From NCBI RefSeq assembly GCF_010672455.1, contig NZ_JAAHGO010000013.1, forward strand, positions 28,938-92,937: a stretch of DNA of 64,000 bases, in the 5' to 3' direction. A program made the position numbers and the translations under genes. Shown here piece by piece: positions 14,080 to 55,573 of the stretch (position 1 is the stretch's first letter; each line of letters opens with the position of its first letter). Source of the stretch: Okeania sp. SIO2C9. GTDB taxonomy: Bacteria; Cyanobacteriota; Cyanobacteriia; Cyanobacteriales; Microcoleaceae. Under the pieces are notes generated by a model that had not been told where the DNA came from, made no database searches, and saw only the letters and a program-made list of their open reading frames with translations.

Positions 14080-14213
14080 GAGCAAATTTTAACTGAAGTC
14101 TGAATGAAGTATATCATTATTTTTGGGGATTATTATCTAGTGCAGGATGGCGGAAATAACTGATGTTTGCTAAAGGACAAAAATATAGACTATCCTAGAC
14201 AAATATGTACAAA

Positions 14214-14319
14214 ATGTCTAGATATTAAACCACACGAATTTGCAGAAAGATTAGGAGTTAGCGTCAAAACTTTACAGCGTTGGGATAAGTGTGAAAAGTT
14301 AAAAACTAAACGCGTATAG
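14214..14319 (+). pseudogene. tnpA: 5' fragment of IS607 tnpA (serine recombinase)
   Basis: After ATGTCTAGATAT and a base deletion the frame reads KPHEFAERLGVSVKTLQRWD, the MerR-like helix-turn-helix that opens IS607-family TnpA. A stop (TAG, 14317-14319) follows and no catalytic domain is left. Traces of the same segment (GAATTAGCAGAAAAAT) persist in copy 3, so the family once had tnpA before tnpB. Confidence 0.65.
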
Positions 14320-14400
14320 GTTAAATCACCGCTACTATACTATAACAAATATTGTTGACATTCCTAGACAGACCATGCTAACTTTGATAAAAGTAATTCA

Positions 14401-15956
14401 ATGTTAGCAATGGGCAAGTCTCACGGTTCCTTGAGAGGCATAGAAGCAAAAATTGAATATCATCCTGTTTTTGAGGAACTGGGAGCATTATATGAATCCT
14501 GGAAACGGTCTGCTGTCAACTGGATGCAAACTGAGAAATTGTCAGATTCTGTTGTAGAAAAGCGACTAATGAAGCAGTTTAACATCCAATGGGCATGGGC
14601 TGATTCAATCGCCACTGAAGCACGAACATGCTTAAGCCAATTAAAAACAGCTAAAACTAATAATATTACTAAACTAGAACTACAAATTAAAGCTAAAATA
14701 ACTGCTGCCCAAAAACTCATCACTAAACTAGAAAAAACATTAAAATTAGCAACAAAAAAAGGTTTTCCGCATCTACAAGCCCGAAATAAATTTTTTCATC
14801 AATTGCTAGGTTTAAAGAGTAAAATTCAGAAAATAAAGTGCCTGAAACGAAAATTAAAGCAATTAAAAAACACAGAACGTTTACATATTTGTTTTGGCTC
14901 ACAGAAATTATTTAAGGCTCAACATAATTTAGCAGAAAACGGATATAAAACCCAAGAAGAATGGAGTGTTGATTGGAGAAAAAAACGCTCAGGTAGGTTT
15001 TTCTGTGTAGGAAAATCTCAGCCAGGCGGTGGAACTATGCTCAAAGTTTTCCCTTTACAAGAGTATGGGTTATATCAACTAGAAATTCAATTACCGAGAG
15101 CATTAGAGGATAAATATGGTCAGAAAATCAAGTTAGAATTTTCTGTTTCAGATAGGAGTGGTCGATATAGAACAACAGATTTAGACTATGCCCTAAATAG
15201 TTTAAAACCAATCACAATTTCTATTTTTCGTCGGGAACACAAACAAGACAATTGGTATATACATCTTTCTACTTATGTACAAGAAATTCCAGTAGTTCAT
15301 ACTAGAAAAAATGGTTGTCTTGGTATTGATTTTAATGCCGACTCAATTTCAGTTACTTATGTTAAATGGGATGGTAATATTGAATATCTAGAAGAGCTAC
15401 CTTATCAATGGAAAAATCAAACTACAGGGCAACGACAAGCAACTATGAGGAATATTGTCGCTGAGATTGTCGCTCTTAGCAGATTTTTTTGAGTGCGCTA
15501 TTGCCATTGAATCCTTAGATTTTACCAAGAAAAAATCCATTGCTCGGAGCGAGGAAAGTAAAGTTTATAATGAGATGCTTTCTAACCTAGCTACGGGAAT
15601 ATTTAGAGAAACTTTAGAGTCACGTTGTAGAAGATTTGGAGTTGAATTAATAAAAGTCAACCCTGCTTTTACGCTTGGTGATAGGAATGATTAATTACAT
15701 GGCTAAATATGGCCTGAATAGTGGCACTGCTGCAGCTTTAGTAATTGGCCGTAGAGCCTTAAAATTATCAGAAAAAATCCCCAAATGTTTGTTGAGACCA
15801 GAGGATGTCAACAAACATGATTGGAGTCATTGGAGGCGAGTTGCTAGTTTTATTAAACTACATCGTATTCGGAGGACTCAACTTTTTCAATGGAGGAAAG
15901 CCCTTGAGGGTATCCTAACCCATAGTTTGTGGGCGGAACATCAACTTTCTGTGTAA
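14401..15956 (+). pseudogene. TnpB-related gene of IS607-like copy 1, frameshifted
   Basis: Closely similar to the intact proteins at 36154-37722 and 53770-55371. Read-through is broken near 15470 (extra bases in GTCGCTCTTAGCAGATTTTTTT) and near 15670-15680 (GCTTGGTGATAGG for the SVIGMINYM segment), giving three frames. LGIDFNADSISVTYV and AIAIESLDF are still present. The C-terminal stop is also early (QLSV-stop). It cannot make the full protein. Confidence 0.85.
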
Positions 15957-16041
15957 GTACACATTGAAACGGGTGAGCCACGAAATCATTTGCAGTCACC
16001 GATGGCAAATGTCTAGCTTTGTCTAGTTTTCAAGAAGGTGA

Positions 16042-30883: not shown

Positions 30884-31081
30884 ATGAAATATAGTATTTT
30901 AGTTCAATGGTCTGAACAGGATAAAACCTATATTGCTAGTTTGCCTGAATGGGGAAAGTATGCTCAAACTCATGGTGAATCTTATGAGGAAGCACTGGAA
31001 AATGCGAAGGAAGTTTTGGCAGATTTAGTTTACGCTTATGAAGAAATGGGAAAACCTCTACCACAGCTACAGAATTTATAA
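30884..31081 (+). CDS. hicB: HicB family antitoxin
   Basis: 65 residues, a short HicB: MKYSILVQWSEQDKTYIASLPEW, AQTHGESYEEALENAKEVLADLV and EEMGKPLPQL match the partially degraded RNase H-like fold of HicB. GGAGATGTCTA precedes the ATG. The toxin gene just upstream is truncated, so HicB has nothing obvious to neutralise here; it lacks the longer C-terminal DNA-binding domain. Immediately downstream begins the seven-copy repeat array. Confidence 0.85.
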   Translation: MKYSILVQWSEQDKTYIASLPEWGKYAQTHGESYEEALENAKEVLADLVYAYEEMGKPLPQLQNL

Positions 31082-31109
31082 ACAATATAATTTGTATGGA
31101 GAGCTATAT

Positions 31110-32290
31110 AGAAGTCAAAAGTCAGAAGTTAGAAGTTAAATTTTTGCTGTGACTAATTTTAATTGTGGGATATTTATATCGAACCCTCAATATATTTGAT
31201 TCAACAGAAGTTAGGTAAGGAAATATTGGTTGACCTATTTTTGAGGAAGGTTTAAATTTAGCGTACGCCTGCCTTGAAGTCAGAAGTCACAAGTCAAAAG
31301 TCAGAAGTTAGAAGTTAAATTTTTGCTGTGACTCATTTTAATTGTGGGATATTTATATCGAACCCTCAATATATTTGATTCAACAGAAGTTAGGTAAGGA
31401 AATATTGGTTGACCTATTTTTGAGGAAGGTTTAAATTTAGCGTACGCCTGCCTTGAAGTCAGAAGTCACAAGTCAAAAGTCAGAAGTTAGAAGTTAAATT
31501 TTTGCTGTGACTCATTTTAATTGTGGGATATTTATATCGAACGCTCTATATATTTGATTCAACAGAAGTTAGGTCAGGAAATATTGGTTGACCTATTTTT
31601 GAGGAAGGTTTAAATTTAGCGTACGCCTGCCTTGAAGTCAGAAGTCAGAAGTTAGAAGTCAAAAGTTAGAAGTTAAATTTTTGCTGTGACCAATCAATTT
31701 GAATTGTGGGATATTTATATTGAACGCTCGATATATTTGATTCAACAGAAGTTAGGTCAGGAAATATTGGTTGACCTATTTTTGAGGAAGGTTTAAATTT
31801 AGCGTACGCCTGCCTTGAAGTCAGAAGTCAGAAGTTAGAAGTCAAAAGTTAGAAGTTAAATTTTTGCTGTGACCAATCAATTTGAATTGTGGGATATTTA
31901 TATCGAACGCTCTATATATTTGATTCAACAGAAGTGAGGTAAGGAAATATTGGTTGACCTATTTTTGAGGAAGGTTTAAATTTAGCGTACGCCAGCCTTG
32001 AAGTCAAAAGTCACAAGTCAAAAGTCAGAAGTTAGAAGTTAAATTTTTGCTGTGACTAATTTTAATTGTGGGATATTTATATCCAACCCTCGATATATTT
32101 GATTCAACAGAGGTGAGGTAAGGAAATATTGGTTGACCTATTTTTGAGGAAGGTTTAAATTTAGCGTACGCCAGCCTTGAAGTCAGAAGTCAAAAGTCAG
32201 AAGTCAGAAGTTAGAAGTTAAATTTTTGCTGTGACTAATTTGAATTGTGGGATATTTATATCGAACGCTCGATATATTTGATTCAACTTT
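31110..32290. repeat. Seven-copy direct repeat array, unit about 180 bases
   Basis: Marker GTGGGATATTTATAT occurs at 31165, 31344, 31523, 31706, 31889, 32068 and 32247, so the spacing is 179-183. Each unit has an AAGTCAGAAGT-type short-repeat block of variable length and a conserved 140-base block up to GCGTACGCC. In units 4 and 5 the block reads FELWDIYIERSIYLIQQKLG then QEILVDLFLRKV-stop in one frame, suggesting amplified gene-tail sequence. The last unit is cut after GATTCAAC. Confidence 0.9.
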
Positions 32291-32442
32291 GGGAGAAAAA
32301 CTGATAACTGATAACTGAAATGGCATCCTGCTTTTTTGTCTCTGGGAAAAACTCTTGACGACTGTGCTAAAAACTATAGGGGGTTTTGCAGAAACTACAA
32401 ACCCCGACCAAAACTGGAAAAGGGCAGTCGGTGGGGTAGTAG

Positions 32443-35163: not shown

Positions 35164-35790
35164 CCCTAAAAAAAAAGCCACTATTTTCCCATAATACTTA
35201 TCTACTTTGAAAATAAAACAACTTTTTCTAGTTGTCAAGGAGCGATCGCTCAATTGCTGTATTTTTTGATTATCCGTGTTCTGGAAATTTCCAAATATAC
35301 TCTTTTTATTCTTGACCCTAGATTCTGATTTTTCCTCACCCTAAAAAAAGAGCCACTATTTTCCCATAATACTTATCTACTTTGAAAATAAAACAACTTT
35401 TTCTAGTTGTCAAGGAGTGATCGCTCAATTGCTGTAATTTTTGATTATCCGTGTTCTGGAAATTTCCAAATATACTCTTTTTATTCTTGACCCTAGATTC
35501 TAATTTTTCCTCGCCCTAAAAAAAGAGCCACTATTTTCCCATAATACTTATCTACTTTGAAAATAAAATAACTTTTTCTAGTTGTCAAGTAGCGATCACT
35601 TTTTCAGTTATCAGTTATCAGTTATCAGTACTAATTTAATGAGACTTGATACGAATCCTAAAATTATAGACAAAATTGAAAAGGTCATTGCTCTAAAAAA
35701 AGAGCCACTATTTTCCCATAATACTTATCTACTATGAAAATAAAACAATTTTTTCTAGTTGTCAAGCAGCGATCGCCCCAAATTAGTCTT
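35164..35790. repeat. Four-copy direct repeat array, unit about 175 bases
   Basis: GCCACTATTTTCCCATAATA at 35177, 35352, 35527 and 35704. Each copy continues TTATCTACTTTGAAAATAAA, then AACTTTTTCTAGTTGTCAAG, then a GATCGC motif. Units 1-3 also share the 90-base linker (TTATCCGTGTTCTGGAAATT). A fifth partial copy (35927-35952) is split by the IS607-like element, whose far side resumes TGTCAAGGAGCGATCGC at 37779. Confidence 0.9.
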
Positions 35791-35951: not shown

Positions 35952-37781
35952 GGCTGTTGCTTGCTAACACCAAAAAATATAGACTATCCTAGACAAACAC
36001 CTACAAAATGTCTAGGATATTACGCAATGGCAAATAGGTAGAAAAATTAGGAACCAGACACGAAACTTAAGTTCATGTCAAAGTTATAGCAAATATTATT
36101 TACACAAAAAGGCAAGCTCTGCTAACCTTGAGTAAAGTGATTCAATGTGAGTAATGGCCAAATCTCACGGTTCCTTAATAGGGATAGAAGCCAAAATTGA
36201 ATATCATCCCGTATTTGAGGAACTCGGAGCATTATATGAATCCTGGAAACGCTCTGCTGTCAACTGGATTCAAACTGAGAAATTGTCAGAATCAGAAGTA
36301 GAAAAGCGTCTAATGAAGCGGTTTAACATCCAATGGGCATGGGCTGATTCAATTGCCACTGAAGCCACTCAATGCTTAAGCCAATTAAAAACAGCTAAGA
36401 ATAACAATATCACTAAATTAGAGTTACAAATTCAAGCTAAAACAACTGCTGCCAAAAAACTTATCACTAAACTAGAAAAAACTTTAAAATTAGCAACAAA
36501 AAAAGGTTTTCCCCATCTACAAGCCCGAAATAAATTTTTTCATCAATTGCTAGGCTTAAAGAGTAAAATTCAGAAAATAAAGTGCCTGAAACGAAAATTA
36601 AAGAAGTTAAAAAACACAGAACGTTTACATATTTGTTTTGGCTCAAAGAGATTATTTAATGCTCAACATAATTTAGCAGAAAATGGATATAAAACCCAAG
36701 AAGAATGGGGTGTAGATTGGATAAAAAAGCGTTCAGGCAGATGTTTATGTGTAGGAAAATCTCAGCCAGGGGGTGGAACTATGCTCAAAGTTTTCCCGTT
36801 ACAACAAGAGGAAGGCTTGTATCAACTACAAGTTCAACTACCTAGACCATTACAAGACAAATATGGTCAGAAAATACAGTTAGAATTTTCTGTTTCAGAT
36901 AGGGATGGTAGATATAGAGCAACAGATTTAGATTATGCCATCAATAGTTTAAAACCAATCACAATTCAAATTTTTCGCAGGGAGCATAAACAGGATAATT
37001 GGTATGTACATCTTTCAACTTATGTACCAGAAATACCAGTAGTTCATACAAGAAAAAATGGTTGTCTAGGTATTGATTTTAATGCAGAATCAATTTCAGT
37101 TGCTTATGTTAAATGGGATGGAAATATTGAATATTTAGAAGAAATCCCGTATAAATGGAAAAATCAAACTACAGGGCAGCGACAAGCATCCATGAGAAAT
37201 ATTGTTTCTCAAATTGTCAAATTAGCAGAATTTTTTGAATGTGCTATTGCCATTGAATCTCTAAACTTTAGTAAGAAAAAGTCCAAGATGAGTGAGGAAA
37301 GTAAAGTTTACAATGAAATGCTTTCTAACTTATCTACAGCAATATTTAGAGAAGCTATATTATCACGTTGTAGAAGATTTGGAGTGGAATTAATTAAAGT
37401 TAATCCAGCTTTTACCAGTGTGATTGGAATGATTAATTACATGGCTAAATACGGTCTAAATAGTGGCACTGCTGCAGCTTTAGTGATTGGCCGTAGAGCC
37501 TTAAAATTATCAGAAAAAATCCCACAGTGTTTGTTGAGACCAGAGGATGTCAACAAACATGATTGGAGTCATTGGAGGCGAGTTGCTAGTTTTATTAAAC
37601 TACATCGTATCCAGAGGACTCAACTTTTTCAATGGAGGAAAGCCCTTGAGGGAATCCTAACCCATAGTTTGTGGGCGGAACATCAACTTTCACAGCAAGT
37701 ACACATTGAAACGGGTGAGTAATCAAATCATTTGCACTCACCGATGGCAAATGTCTAGCTTTGTCTAGTTTTCAAGAAGGT
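35952..37781 (+). mobile_element. IS607-like element, copy 2 (intact tnpB-like gene)
   Basis: Left part GTTGCTTGCTAACACC, inverted repeat CCTAGACAAAC...ATGTCTAGG; right end TCTAGTTTTCAAGAAGGTG. The flanks are two halves of the 175-base repeat (TTTTTCTGG on the left, TGTCAAGGAGCGATCGC on the right; uninterrupted copies read CTAGTTGTCAAGG), so the empty site can be read directly. About 1.83 kb. No tnpA. Confidence 0.8.
36154..37722 (+). CDS. TnpB-related protein of IS607-like element
   Basis: 522 residues, longer than the typical 350-450 of TnpB. N-terminal 200 residues are Lys-rich and helical (KLITKLEKTLKLATKKGFPH). RuvC-like core: D308 in LGIDFNAESISVAYV, E368 in AIAIESLNF, and VNPAFTS (416-422), where TnpB usually continues into the CxxC zinc finger. 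Here no zinc finger occurs; instead it goes SVIGMINYMAKYGLNSGTAAALVIGRRAL, with no DRDxNAA motif, so the third acidic residue is absent or moved. This matches proteins annotated as TnpB-related or accessory. Whether it cuts DNA is unknown. Start ATG at 36154, weak Shine-Dalgarno (GAGTA). The frame is intact, as in copy 3. Confidence 0.8.
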   Translation: MAKSHGSLIGIEAKIEYHPVFEELGALYESWKRSAVNWIQTEKLSESEVEKRLMKRFNIQWAWADSIATEATQCLSQLKTAKNNNITKLELQIQAKTTAAKKLITKLEKTLKLATKKGFPHLQARNKFFHQLLGLKSKIQKIKCLKRKLKKLKNTERLHICFGSKRLFNAQHNLAENGYKTQEEWGVDWIKKRSGRCLCVGKSQPGGGTMLKVFPLQQEEGLYQLQVQLPRPLQDKYGQKIQLEFSVSDRDGRYRATDLDYAINSLKPITIQIFRREHKQDNWYVHLSTYVPEIPVVHTRKNGCLGIDFNAESISVAYVKWDGNIEYLEEIPYKWKNQTTGQRQASMRNIVSQIVKLAEFFECAIAIESLNFSKKKSKMSEESKVYNEMLSNLSTAIFREAILSRCRRFGVELIKVNPAFTSVIGMINYMAKYGLNSGTAAALVIGRRALKLSEKIPQCLLRPEDVNKHDWSHWRRVASFIKLHRIQRTQLFQWRKALEGILTHSLWAEHQLSQQVHIETGE

Positions 37782-37864
37782 GTCAAGGAGCGATCGCTTA
37801 AAATTAATCTTCCAGCAAATCAAGAAAATTTCCCCTAAATTCTAAATTCTAAATTCTAAATTCA

Positions 37865-39079
37865 TCAAGCAATACTCCCCCTCTTCCGAGTCTCCTTATA
37901 AGAAGTTCCTACATTTCTCAAACCAGCTTTAATCATTTCCTGCTCTAATAAAGCAAAGAAACTCGCTCGATCGCCTCCCCGAACCACTGCCTGATTATGA
38001 GCTTCTGCCAATACCACCGGATAACCATAACCTTTTTGCACTTGAGCCAACATCATTCCTAACACTAATTCCAACATTTCTTCATCTTCAGCCACCCATT
38101 CCGGCATATCAATTCTCGCAACTTCCGTACCCACATTCACATAACAAAAATAGATAATATTATCTCCATATAAATCCAAAATTCTAGCGGAAGATTGCCA
38201 TAAAGGACTTCTTTGCCCTGGTTGCAATATCGAACCCCAAAATATCACATCTCGCAAAGGTTCAAATGACTGACAAGGAGCTTTTTCCGTAAAACCAAAT
38301 CCTCCTAAACCAACATTCGGACAATTACTAACACAATCAGGTTCATCATAAATACAAGCCTTTAAACGTAAAAAAGACAAACTTTCACTACTGCGAGAAG
38401 CACTCAAATAACCAATCAAAGGAATACCCGCTAACTTTAATTTATTCCAAGCATCTAAAATCGGATTTAAAATTCTATCCCGTGCTTCAGAAGGCAAAGA
38501 TTCTAAGAACCAATAAATCAGAGAACCATCAACCATAGCTAATATTGGGGAATCTAAATTATCCGGATTATTTTCCCTCCATTCACAACCCAAATCTGCC
38601 AAAACCAAAGCCTCAGAAATAGTCCGTCGATAACCCATCCATTCTTCAGTTTTAATTCCCCATTGTCGAGAAATATAAAGATCATCTGCCTGATAAAAAA
38701 TCTCTGGAATACTATCTAAAAGTGGATAAATACTTTCACCATAATTCAACATAACTCTTCCAATATTTAGCAAATAACAATAAGCAATTTCATGGTGACT
38801 TGGTGCTATTTGAGAACCGTCCGTAGCAAATACCGTATGATTTTTTGGAGGAGGATTAATTTGAGGATAAGTATCTAAAGATTCTATAGGAATAGCCGGA
38901 TTAAAAAGTATGCGATCGCTCCAACTTTCTTCTAATTCTAATAATTCTTCTTGTTCATTTTTTGCCTCTTCTAGTAATTGTTGAGCTATTTCCAATCTAT
39001 TTTGTGCTGCCATTGCTTCTGCTGTGAGATGTTGGCTCATCCCTTGCATTTGTTTCGCTAGTTTTGTGAGGTCTAGCAT
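37865..39079 (-). CDS. NurA-domain DNA repair nuclease
   Basis: 404 residues. VFATDGSQIAPSHHEIAYCYLLNIG (D87 in the first catalytic motif) and a second AMVDGSLIYWFLE motif near 190 are the NurA signature; NurA is a 5'-3' nuclease that in archaea works with HerA and Mre11-Rad50 in end resection. Cyanobacteria carry NurA-domain proteins of this length. Residues 1-50 are a coiled coil rich in Glu/Gln. Later motifs: SFLRLKACIYDEPDC and YPVVLAEAHNQAVVRGGDR. No HerA neighbour is seen. Upstream is a purine-rich repeat array; the promoter must lie within or before it. Confidence 0.85.
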   Translation of the reverse strand: MLDLTKLAKQMQGMSQHLTAEAMAAQNRLEIAQQLLEEAKNEQEELLELEESWSDRILFNPAIPIESLDTYPQINPPPKNHTVFATDGSQIAPSHHEIAYCYLLNIGRVMLNYGESIYPLLDSIPEIFYQADDLYISRQWGIKTEEWMGYRRTISEALVLADLGCEWRENNPDNLDSPILAMVDGSLIYWFLESLPSEARDRILNPILDAWNKLKLAGIPLIGYLSASRSSESLSFLRLKACIYDEPDCVSNCPNVGLGGFGFTEKAPCQSFEPLRDVIFWGSILQPGQRSPLWQSSARILDLYGDNIIYFCYVNVGTEVARIDMPEWVAEDEEMLELVLGMMLAQVQKGYGYPVVLAEAHNQAVVRGGDRASFFALLEQEMIKAGLRNVGTSYKETRKRGSIA

Positions 39080-52949: not shown

Positions 52950-53465
52950 TCAAAGAATTACTCTTAATTTAGCTAAATTACTAATTTCATACCTCCAATC
53001 ACCAACCCTTGTAATGGCAGCTTTGACTTTTTCTTTTGCATAGTGTCTAGAGCCATATATTCGACATGAAAAACAGTGGATAATAGCCAGCAGATCTTCT
53101 ACTAGCTCCTGTTGTGGTGATAGATTAGACTGATTGGCTACAATGATTTGACAACCGGAACGGTTCACTAATGTTTCAACTCGCATCACTCTTCAAATCT
53201 ACATAATCTATCTTTGTGGGCAACTACAATACTTTCTGTTTTACCATCTATGGCATCTATAACAATTCTTAAGAATTCTCGGCGCTTAAAATTCATACCC
53301 CCGCCTATTTCACAAATCCACTGATCGACACATAAACCTTTAGCTAGACAAAATTTTTCCATAGCCTCTTTTTGGTTCTGTAGTTCCTGATTTTGTTTAG
53401 CGGAGGATACAAGGGCAATAAACTACAACTTGACGTTTCCTAGATTGAGGTTTTAACCCTCAAGC
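52950..53465 (-). pseudogene. tnpA: IS607-type tnpA (serine recombinase), decayed
   Basis: Read on the minus strand in three frames: QSRKRQVVVYC, then SSAKQNQELQNQKEAMEKFC...MNFKRREFLRIVIDAIDGKT, SIVVAHKDRLCRF, then VETLVNRSGCQIIVANQSNL-SPQQELVEDLLAIIHCFSCR. This is the IS607 TnpA catalytic domain (VYCRVSS with its active-site serine, AHKDRLCRFG) with a shift near 53415 and one near 53194. The N-terminal helix-turn-helix is not recognisable. It lies just downstream of IS607-like copy 3 on the same strand, in the wrong order for a normal tnpA-tnpB pair. Confidence 0.75.
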
Positions 53466-53740: not shown

Positions 53741-55573
53741 AGCGACACCTTCTTGAAAACTAGACAAAGCTAGACATTTGCCATCGGTGACTGCAAATGA
53801 TTTTGTGGCTCACCCGTTTCAATGTGTACTTGCTGTGAAAGTTGATGTTCCGCCCACAAGCTATGGGTTAGGATTCCCTCAAGGGCTTTCCTCCATTGAA
53901 AAAGTTGAGTCCTCTGGATACGATGTAGTTTAATAAAACTAGCAACTCGCCTCCAATGACTCCAATCATGTTTGTTGACATCCCCTGGTCTCAACAAACA
54001 CTGTGGTATTTTTTCTGATAATTTTAATGCTCTACGACCAATTACTAAAGCTGCAGCAGTGCCACTATTGAGGCCATACTTAGGCATATAATTAATCATT
54101 CCAATTACACTGGTAAAAGCTGGATTAACTTTAATTAATTCAACTCCAAATCTTCTACAACGTGACAATATAGCTTCCCTAAACATTCCCGTAGACAAAT
54201 TGGAAAGCATCTCATTATAAACTTTACCTTCCTCGCTCATCTTGGATTTTTTCTTGCTAAAGTCTAGAGACTCAACCGCAATAGCACATTCAAAAAACTC
54301 TGCTAATTTGACAATTTGACAAACAATATTTCTCATAGTTGCTTGTCGTTTTCCTGTTGTTTGATTTTTCCATTTATACGGGATTTCTTCTAAATATTCA
54401 ATGTTACCATCCCACTTCACATAAGTAACTGAAATTGATTCTGCATTAAAATCAATACCAAGGCAACCATTTTTTCTAGTATGAACTACTGGAATTTCTT
54501 GTACATAAGTTGAAAGATGTATATACCAATTATCCTGTTTATGTTCTCTACGAAAAATAGAAATTGTAATTGGTTTTAAACTGTTTATGGCATAATCTAA
54601 ATCTGTTGTTCTATATCGACCATTCCTATCTGAAACAGAAAATTCTAACTGTATTTTTTGACCATATTTGTCCTGTAATGGTCTCGGTAGTTGAATCTCT
54701 AATTTATACTTACCATCCTCTTGTAATGGGAAAACTTTCATCATAGTTCCACCGCCTGGCTGAGATTTTCCTACACATAAAAATCTGCCTGACCGTTTTT
54801 TTCGCCAATCTAAACTCCATCCCGATCGGGTTTTATATCCATTTTCTGCTAAATTATGTTGAGCGTTAAATAATTTCTGTGAACCAAAACAAATATGTAG
54901 ACGTTCTGTATTTTTTAACTTCTTTAATTTTTGTTTCAGACTAGCTATTTTCTGAACTTTACTCTTTAAACCTAGTAATTGATGAAAAAATTTGTTTCGA
55001 GATTGTGTATGTGGAAAACCTTTTTTTGTTGCTAGTTTTAATGTTTTTTCTAGCTTAGTGATAAGTTTTTTTGTAGCAGTTGTTTTAGCTTGGATTTGTA
55101 ACTCTAATTTAGTGATATAGTTTTTTTTAGCTGTTTTTAATTGGTTTAAACATGTTCGTGCTTCAGTAGCGATTGAGTCAGCCCATGCCCACTGAATGTT
55201 AAACTTTTTCTGGAGACGCTTTTCTACTGAGGATTCTGATAATTTCTCTGTTTGCATCCAGTTAATAGCAGAGCGTTTCCAGGATTCATATAATGCTCCG
55301 AGTTCCTCAAATACTGGATGATATTCAATTTTGGCTTCTATCCCTATTAAGGAACCGTGAGATTTGACCATTACTTACATTGAATTACTTTACTCAAGGT
55401 TAGCAGAGCTTGTCTCAGGGTGTCAATAATATTTGTGATAGCTTTGACATGAACTCAAGTTTCGTGTCAGGATCTATATTTTTCTGCTAATTCGCGATTG
55501 TCTCATATCCTAGACATTTTGTATATGTTTGTTTAGGATAGTCTATATTTTTTGGTGTTAGCAAGCAACAGTC
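53741..55573 (-). mobile_element. IS607-like element, copy 3 (intact tnpB-like gene)
   Basis: On the minus strand: GTTGCTTGCTAACACC, inverted repeat CCTAAACAAAC...ATGTCTAGGATA, gene, right end CTTTGTCTAGTTTTCAAGAAG-GTGT. Flanks differ from copy 2, confirming the ends. About 1.83 kb. The 190 bases before the gene still show traces of tnpA. Confidence 0.8.
53770..55371 (-). CDS. TnpB-related protein of IS607-like element
   Basis: 533 residues, clearly homologous and mostly collinear with the copy 2 protein; the C-terminal difference is only that copy 3 has no early stop after HIETGE. Same features: Lys-rich helical N-terminus, LGIDFNAESISVTYV and AVESLDF RuvC-like motifs, VNPAFTSVIGMINYMPKYGL instead of a zinc finger. 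Two intact copies and one broken copy show recent mobility or selection on the gene. Start ATG at 55371 after TGTAAGTA. Copies lack a linked tnpA, so transposition would need TnpA in trans. Confidence 0.8.
   Translation of the reverse strand: MVKSHGSLIGIEAKIEYHPVFEELGALYESWKRSAINWMQTEKLSESSVEKRLQKKFNIQWAWADSIATEARTCLNQLKTAKKNYITKLELQIQAKTTATKKLITKLEKTLKLATKKGFPHTQSRNKFFHQLLGLKSKVQKIASLKQKLKKLKNTERLHICFGSQKLFNAQHNLAENGYKTRSGWSLDWRKKRSGRFLCVGKSQPGGGTMMKVFPLQEDGKYKLEIQLPRPLQDKYGQKIQLEFSVSDRNGRYRTTDLDYAINSLKPITISIFRREHKQDNWYIHLSTYVQEIPVVHTRKNGCLGIDFNAESISVTYVKWDGNIEYLEEIPYKWKNQTTGKRQATMRNIVCQIVKLAEFFECAIAVESLDFSKKKSKMSEEGKVYNEMLSNLSTGMFREAILSRCRRFGVELIKVNPAFTSVIGMINYMPKYGLNSGTAAALVIGRRALKLSEKIPQCLLRPGDVNKHDWSHWRRVASFIKLHRIQRTQLFQWRKALEGILTHSLWAEHQLSQQVHIETGEPQNHLQSPMANV

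What the first reader, a model, noticed from the sequence alone, without database searches (positions are those of the whole stretch)
35952..37781. TnpA-less IS607-like family encoding a zinc-finger-less TnpB-related protein
Three copies (14168-16041, 35952-37781, 53741-55573) share ends and a 522-533-residue RuvC-like protein. It keeps two acidic RuvC motifs but replaces the zinc finger and the DRDxNAA motif with SVIGMINYMAKYGLNSGTAA. Two copies are intact, which suggests selection or recent movement. The 190 bases before the gene retain only tnpA scraps, so movement would need TnpA in trans. The long Lys-rich N-terminus is another difference from normal TnpB. Whether it uses a guide RNA from the conserved right end is an open question.
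Basis: partly seen in the sequence, partly recalled or inferred. Interest (0 to 1): 0.7.

Follow-up and report, generated by a model that had tools for sequence, protein, structure and literature searches.

The report
Zinc-finger-less TnpB element with guide RNA
A cyanobacterium carries several copies of a jumping element that has lost its own transposase but keeps an unusual relative of the RNA-guided DNA cutter TnpB together with what looks like a conserved guide RNA, which may show how such cutters alter or lose their cutting site and still survive.

Summary
Three copies (about 14160-16040, 35954-37782, 53746-55571) share ends and a TnpB-related protein; two are open here (522 and 533 aa) and a third open copy lies elsewhere in the genome. 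These three evolve under purifying selection (dN/dS 0.14). The family is IS607: relatives with the same kind of protein carry an intact serine-recombinase tnpA, while the window holds only tnpA relics. A hairpin keeps its loop (TCACC) while its stem changes by compensation, and the loop can pair with the terminal GGTG; two other subgroups show the same plan with other loop/terminus pairs. It matches a pseudoknot described for experimentally tested IS607 TnpBs. Empty sites show insertion at C-TG with a TG core, so the flank after AGAAGGTG is the predicted guide and (A)CTG the predicted TAM. Five tnpB-free derivatives of about 310 bp retain this end, one of them decayed. D308 and E368 are invariant; the third RuvC Asp is Gly here and D/H/G/A across the family, while E454 is nearly invariant. 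Whether the protein cuts or only binds is unresolved. New variant of a known kind.

The parts
35954..37782 (+). copy B, full-length tnpA-less element: target C, core TG (35955-35956) to GGTG (37779-37782)
   Evidence: alignment of three copies; other units of the local repeat are empty sites
36154..37722 (+). tnpB-related gene, 522 aa
37660..37676 (+). hairpin inside the 3' end of the gene, kept with changed pairs in miniature copies
37729..37753 (+). right-end RNA hairpin, stem CATTTGC/GCAAATG, loop with TCACCGA
37779..37782 (+). terminal GGTG, complementary to CACC of the loop (37739-37742); holds the TG core; predicted guide starts after it
14160..16040 (+). copy A, broken tnpB, keeps the HTH start of tnpA (14224-14313)
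53746..55571 (-). copy C, intact
53770..55371 (-). tnpB-related gene of copy C, 533 aa
53019..53465 (-). broken relic of a tnpA close to that of relative L077 (serine-recombinase domain)
35209..35279 (+). one of four units of the repeat that serve as empty paralogues of copy B's site (others start at 35384, 35559, 35736)

Best explanation
This is a non-autonomous IS607-family element. It encodes a divergent TnpB that forms a complex with an RNA read from the 3' end of its own gene and the right end. The RNA scaffold ends with a hairpin whose loop pairs with the terminal GGUG; the bases after it, from the flanking DNA, are the guide. The complex recognises the re-formed empty site, (A)CTG followed by the guide sequence, after an IS607 TnpA acting in trans has excised the element at its TG core. 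It most likely cuts there, so that repair restores the element. The cutting centre is altered: D308 and E368 stay, the third Asp is Gly, and another acid (best candidate E454) would have to replace it. Shown here by sequence or prediction: copies, ends, TG core, selection, covarying RNA, protein fold. Inferred: transcription of the RNA, the complex, the TAM, targeting, cutting, TnpA in trans and the role of E454.
For: RNA: stem 93.5% paired, 25 doubly changed cells, 0/500 shuffles for both; seven divergent representatives average 6.0 bp against at most 4.14 in 1854 re-pairings; 26 of 28 members of the nearest subgroup have loop, stem and GGTG, the other two being cut by a contig end; loop and terminus differ together between subgroups, CACC/GGTG, GYGC/GCGC, CCG(C)/GCGG, in 22 of 23 rows. 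Ends: empty sites in three congeners and in the window; C before the core in 23 of 24 left junctions. IS607: intact tnpA beside homologues in L077 and L089. Selection: dN/dS 0.14 for each pair of the three intact copies. Fold: the best PDB matches are Cas12f, with Cas12m, RuvC and Cas12k lower. D308 and E368 in 42 of 42 and 30 of 30 aligned homologues; E454 in 42 of 42.
Against: No transcript or activity data. The third acid is absent from its usual place; in ISFba1 TnpB the RuvC mutations D194A, E290A, D371A stop interference (PMC11061315, passages). E454 comes after the last RuvC helix (437-449), in a block of only moderate confidence (451-460, pLDDT 73; the next blocks 61 and 64), and its distance to D308 and E368 could not be measured. 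E454 is also present in members that keep D438, and in 2 of 8 members of the clade with D437, so relocation is not demonstrated. Whole-chain structural matches are loose (TM 0.2-0.4, rmsd mostly over 10 A). The count of pairs changed on both sides is weaker than the other measures (6 pairs; 36 of 500 shuffles reach it). CACC/GGTG itself hardly varies within the nearest subgroup, and the patterns for the two other subgroups were chosen after looking at their alignments.
Confidence: 0.5

Rival explanations
1. Nuclease-deficient version: the protein and its right-end RNA bind CTG+guide sites but no longer cut, and act as a roadblock or repressor, as Cas12m does; Cas12k and TldR are other nuclease-deficient cases.
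For: The RuvC-III Asp is Gly or Ala in this clade and in at least one other; the four states at this place need 7 changes over 46 rows. Cas12m binds without cutting dsDNA even with D-E-D (PMC11013384, passages). Cas12m and Cas12k are among the structural matches.
Against: D308 and E368 are invariant over deep divergence, which is unexpected if no chemistry is left. The copies sit beside many different flanks, thus many different predicted guides, not one regulatory target.
Confidence: 0.35
2. The right-end conservation serves only TnpA binding to DNA or is a remnant; the protein is kept for some task without a guide RNA, or is only decaying slowly.
For: The right end also holds TGTCTAG motifs shared with the left end, as expected of TnpA sites; several copies are broken.
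Against: DNA sites do not explain stems that change by compensation around a fixed loop or a loop that changes together with the terminus; dN/dS 0.14 argues against decay of the intact copies.
Confidence: 0.1

Closest known systems
IS607 TnpBs ISXfa1 and ISFba1
   Same: IS607 element; right-end RNA with a loop-to-terminus pseudoknot; in ISXfa1 the right-flanking core nucleotide belongs to the scaffold (PMC10711439, passages; PMC11061315, section 10 and passages)
   Different: ISFba1 has a D-E-D site and its group averages 390 aa; reported TAMs are GGG and AGGAG and IS607 exchange is at GG. Here: no zinc finger, Gly at the third position, TG core, 522 aa, no tnpA; no Rfam match for the RNA
pro-Fanzors (cyanobacterial IS607 TnpBs)
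   Same: cyanobacterial IS607 TnpBs with an altered RuvC site (PMC10711439, passages)
   Different: there the RuvC-II Glu is moved and the zinc finger is kept, with DPG at RuvC-I; here Glu is in place, the zinc finger is gone, and RuvC-I reads GIDFN
Cas12m and Cas12k
   Same: TnpB-related fold, DNA binding without cutting (Cas12m: PMC11013384, passages)
   Different: CRISPR-guided effectors; here the predicted guide comes from a transposon end
NCBI 'IS200/IS605 family accessory protein TnpB-related protein' (TIGR01766), including Thermus homologues
   Same: P0001 passes its cut-off (41.7 against 32); distant homologues in Thermus plasmids and phages bear such names
   Different: a sequence label without a tested function; the narrower guided_TnpB model is not passed (47.5 against 100)

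Membership tests
IS607 family | serine-recombinase tnpA in the element | tested here: inconclusive
   only relics in the window copies; intact in relatives L077 and L089
IS607 family | exchange over an identical dinucleotide, no target duplication beyond it | tested here: met
   empty and filled sites, core TG rather than the GG of known members (PMC6188088 passages)
TnpB (RNA-guided nuclease) | RuvC fold with the first two catalytic acids | tested here: met
   D308, E368 invariant; Foldseek to Cas12 and RuvC
TnpB (RNA-guided nuclease) | third RuvC acid (DRDxNAA) and zinc finger | tested here: not met
TnpB (RNA-guided nuclease) | structured right-end RNA | tested here: met
   by covariation only; no expression data
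TnpB (RNA-guided nuclease) | guide-dependent DNA cleavage | not testable with these tools
   needs an experiment
pro-Fanzor | moved RuvC-II Glu just before a zinc finger, DPG motif | tested here: not met
IS1341-type (tnpB only) | no tnpA-derived sequence | tested here: not met
   tnpA remnants at the left end; PMC9956272 (passages) excludes such decays
type V CRISPR effector | CRISPR array next to the gene | not tested
   no array search was run on the window; the copies behave as an IS with fixed ends

The most novel reading that the evidence does not exclude
A lineage of IS607 TnpBs has lost the zinc finger and, more than once, the third RuvC acid, yet stays under selection with its own covarying guide RNA. 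It either cuts with a relocated acid (E454) or has become an RNA-guided binder that lives in transposons. tnpB-free miniature elements spread further guide RNAs around the genome for the same protein to use in trans.
Probability: 0.4. Interest if true: 0.72.

Novelty: new variant of a known kind. Interest (0 to 1): 0.52.

Why it matters
It offers a testable natural series (D, H, G, A at one catalytic position, with two other acids fixed) for how TnpB and Cas12 nucleases change or lose cutting while keeping RNA guidance. It also predicts the guide, the scaffold and the target motif of a TnpB branch for which I found no characterisation in the library searched, and shows miniature elements that may carry solo guide RNAs.

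Tried and rejected
Rfam gave no match to 37560-37900. Pfam gave only sub-threshold matches for P0001 and P0002. phmmer against PDB sequences gave a coiled-coil match (SH3BP5, E 0.03) to the long helices and a weak Cas12m4a match (E 0.087); neither was used.

Empty-site searches with the flanks of the full-length copies on C124 and C270 found the flanks only apart, never joined. Only the miniature copy on C113 and the repeat in the window gave empty sites.

I first took E454 for a clean replacement of the lost Asp. That is weakened: it also occurs together with D438, and in 2 of 8 members of the D437 clade. It stays a candidate only.

A search for sites like copy B's predicted target in its own genome gave 32 matches with up to 2 mismatches; 2 were perfect over 17 bases: the copy's own right junction and an empty repeat unit with TTG, not CTG. 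This says nothing either way about cutting.

MAFFT alignments with mixed spacer lengths misplace the stem, so no covariance model was built and no genome was searched with one. Covariation was counted on fixed windows: 65 used 11 rows of one loop spacing out of the 18 rows aligned; it includes the decayed L018 and leaves out L108 and the L076-L080 and L134 rows, whose loop length differs. These are covered (23 sequences, 19 distinct, mean stem 5.84 bp against a shuffled mean of 2.84 and maximum of 4.05 in 5000). The rows are related, so its shuffles are not probabilities.

Dropped rows: 7 of 49 family members as partial; 16 of 62 rows as near-copies. The states were set by hand (the script found no motif in 11 of 62). 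The tree is a quick one with long branches (L192c, L144, L143). One search counts junctions that fit a pattern and misses deviant left ends seen (such as L011, L017, L019, L073, L114); L017 has A before the core. In one search L085 was missed by the pattern and read by eye; L083, L084, L088, L093-L095 and L135-L138 were not tested there.

Full report
What is there. The window lies in a 10.9-Mb genome of 317 contigs; the close named homologues of the protein are mostly in Okeania records. Three copies of one element lie at about 14160-16040, 35954-37782 and 53746-55571. Two carry an open tnpB-like gene; a third open copy is on contig C270. The genome also holds fragments and five miniature copies of about 310 bp (C24, two on C113, C68, C124), which have only about the first 75 and the last 165 bases in common with the full-length element.

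Element type. The left end still encodes the start of an IS607 TnpA; the 14-kb copy keeps its HTH. A broken relic of the catalytic domain lies at 53019-53465 (-), with pieces 59-68% identical to the intact TnpA of relative L077. L077 and L089 carry an intact tnpA directly before the tnpB-like gene. The genome has 20 matches to the IS607 TnpA model, 8 over its cut-off. Of the frames compared, the nearest complete one (L057) is 44% identical to L077's TnpA over 200 residues, and part of another (L058) 47% over 89, so none is clearly the cognate. Copies at different sites share the same shortened left end, which suggests that the loss came before they spread and that TnpA acted in trans (inference).

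Ends and target. A miniature copy on C113 has an empty site in three congeners (G291, G250, G293); in G292 the two flanks lie 319 bp apart with the element's left end between them. The empty site reads AACTG-TGTC, the filled one AACTG...GGTG-TGTC. Copy B lies in one unit of a local repeat whose other units read CTAGTTG-TCAAG, against CTGGCTG...GGTG-TCAAG. So exchange is over TG, with C before it in 23 of 24 left junctions that fit the search pattern, and A before that in 13 of 24. IS607 itself uses GG (PMC6188088, passages). Searches with the flanks of two full-length copies on other contigs gave no joined empty site.

Guide RNA. Of 49 family members looked at, 28 form the nearest subgroup; 26 of these, down to Calothrix NIES-4105 (41% protein identity), have near the gene's end a hairpin with CACC in its loop and GGTG downstream, and the other two are cut by a contig end. 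The stem changes sequence but stays paired: 93.5% of cells and 25 double changes, reached by 0 of 500 shuffles; 6 pairs with a change on both sides, reached by 36 of 500. Seven divergent representatives average 6.0 bp, while the best of 1854 re-pairings averages 4.14. The loop's CACC complements the terminal GGTG. In two other subgroups the hairpin recurs with loop GYGC and end GCGC, or loop CCG(C) and end GCGG (22 of 23 rows, with patterns chosen after seeing the alignments; L085 by eye). One miniature copy, L018, has a mostly broken stem and the end GGTC. In ISXfa1 and ISFba1 TnpB such a loop-to-terminus pseudoknot is described; a mutation against it lowers activity in ISXfa1, and loop mutations impair complex formation in ISFba1 (PMC10711439 passages; PMC11061315 section 10). 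A second hairpin inside the 3' end of the gene is kept with changed pairs in the miniature copies, but not cleanly in L074, and could not be placed in the more distant rows.

Protein. NCBIfam TIGR01766 is passed, guided_TnpB is not. AlphaFold2 gives mean pLDDT 78.8 and pTM 0.56 on 30 sequences. Foldseek finds Cas12f first, then Cas12e, Cas12g, Cas12m, RuvC and Cas12k, loosely over the whole chain. D308 and E368 are invariant in 42 of 42 and 30 of 30 aligned homologues. The zinc finger is gone. The second D of DRD in a canonical TnpB lines up with G438. Homologues have D, H, G or A there, and a far viral clade has D at 437; the tree needs 7 changes among the four states over 46 rows. E454 is E in 42 of 42; in the second set it is E in 21 and D in 1 of the 22 rows outside the D437 clade, and E in 2 of the 8 rows inside it. 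dN/dS is 0.14 for each pair of the three intact copies of this genome and 0.09-0.34 over all 45 pairs of ten genes.

Reading. The most likely account is an RNA-guided TnpB of a non-autonomous IS607 element with an altered cutting centre. Whether it cuts with a relocated acid or only binds is open. Literature: eight searches of the open library did not list a description of this branch; I saw listings, abstracts and passages, and section 10 of PMC11061315. The main TnpB census (Altae-Tran 2023, PNAS) is not held; from recall it reports rearranged TnpB sites, so this branch may be noted there. TldR is known to me here from listings and abstracts only; Cas12k from passages and recall.

Noticed in passing
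window 30976-32357: Seven overlapping 300-nt matches at steps of 179-183 bp, 68-99% alike: a tandem repeat.
   Followed up: no
window 35209, 35384, 35559, 35736: The local repeat CTTTTTCTAGTTGTCAAGGAGCGATCGC resembles the element's right end (CTAGTTTTCAAGAAGG); may be chance.
   Followed up: partly
L138 2201-4280: Thermus phage Lalka27b: TnpB homologue beside a CRISPR-like array, as its authors note (PMC11437467, passages).
   Followed up: partly
L057 375-2040 (-) and L058 1463-3139: An IS607 tnpA is overlapped by a 551-558 aa frame on the same strand.
   Followed up: no
L116 425-2995: An 857-aa frame in Okeania sp. SIO3B5 ends with 45 residues 60% identical to the TnpA C-terminus of L077, just before tnpB.
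   Followed up: no
L156-L174 (8 full frames): Viral-contig clade of 424-489 aa with the RuvC-III Asp one residue earlier (such as SDPVNASLEIGRR) and no zinc finger between NPAYSS and that motif.
   Followed up: partly
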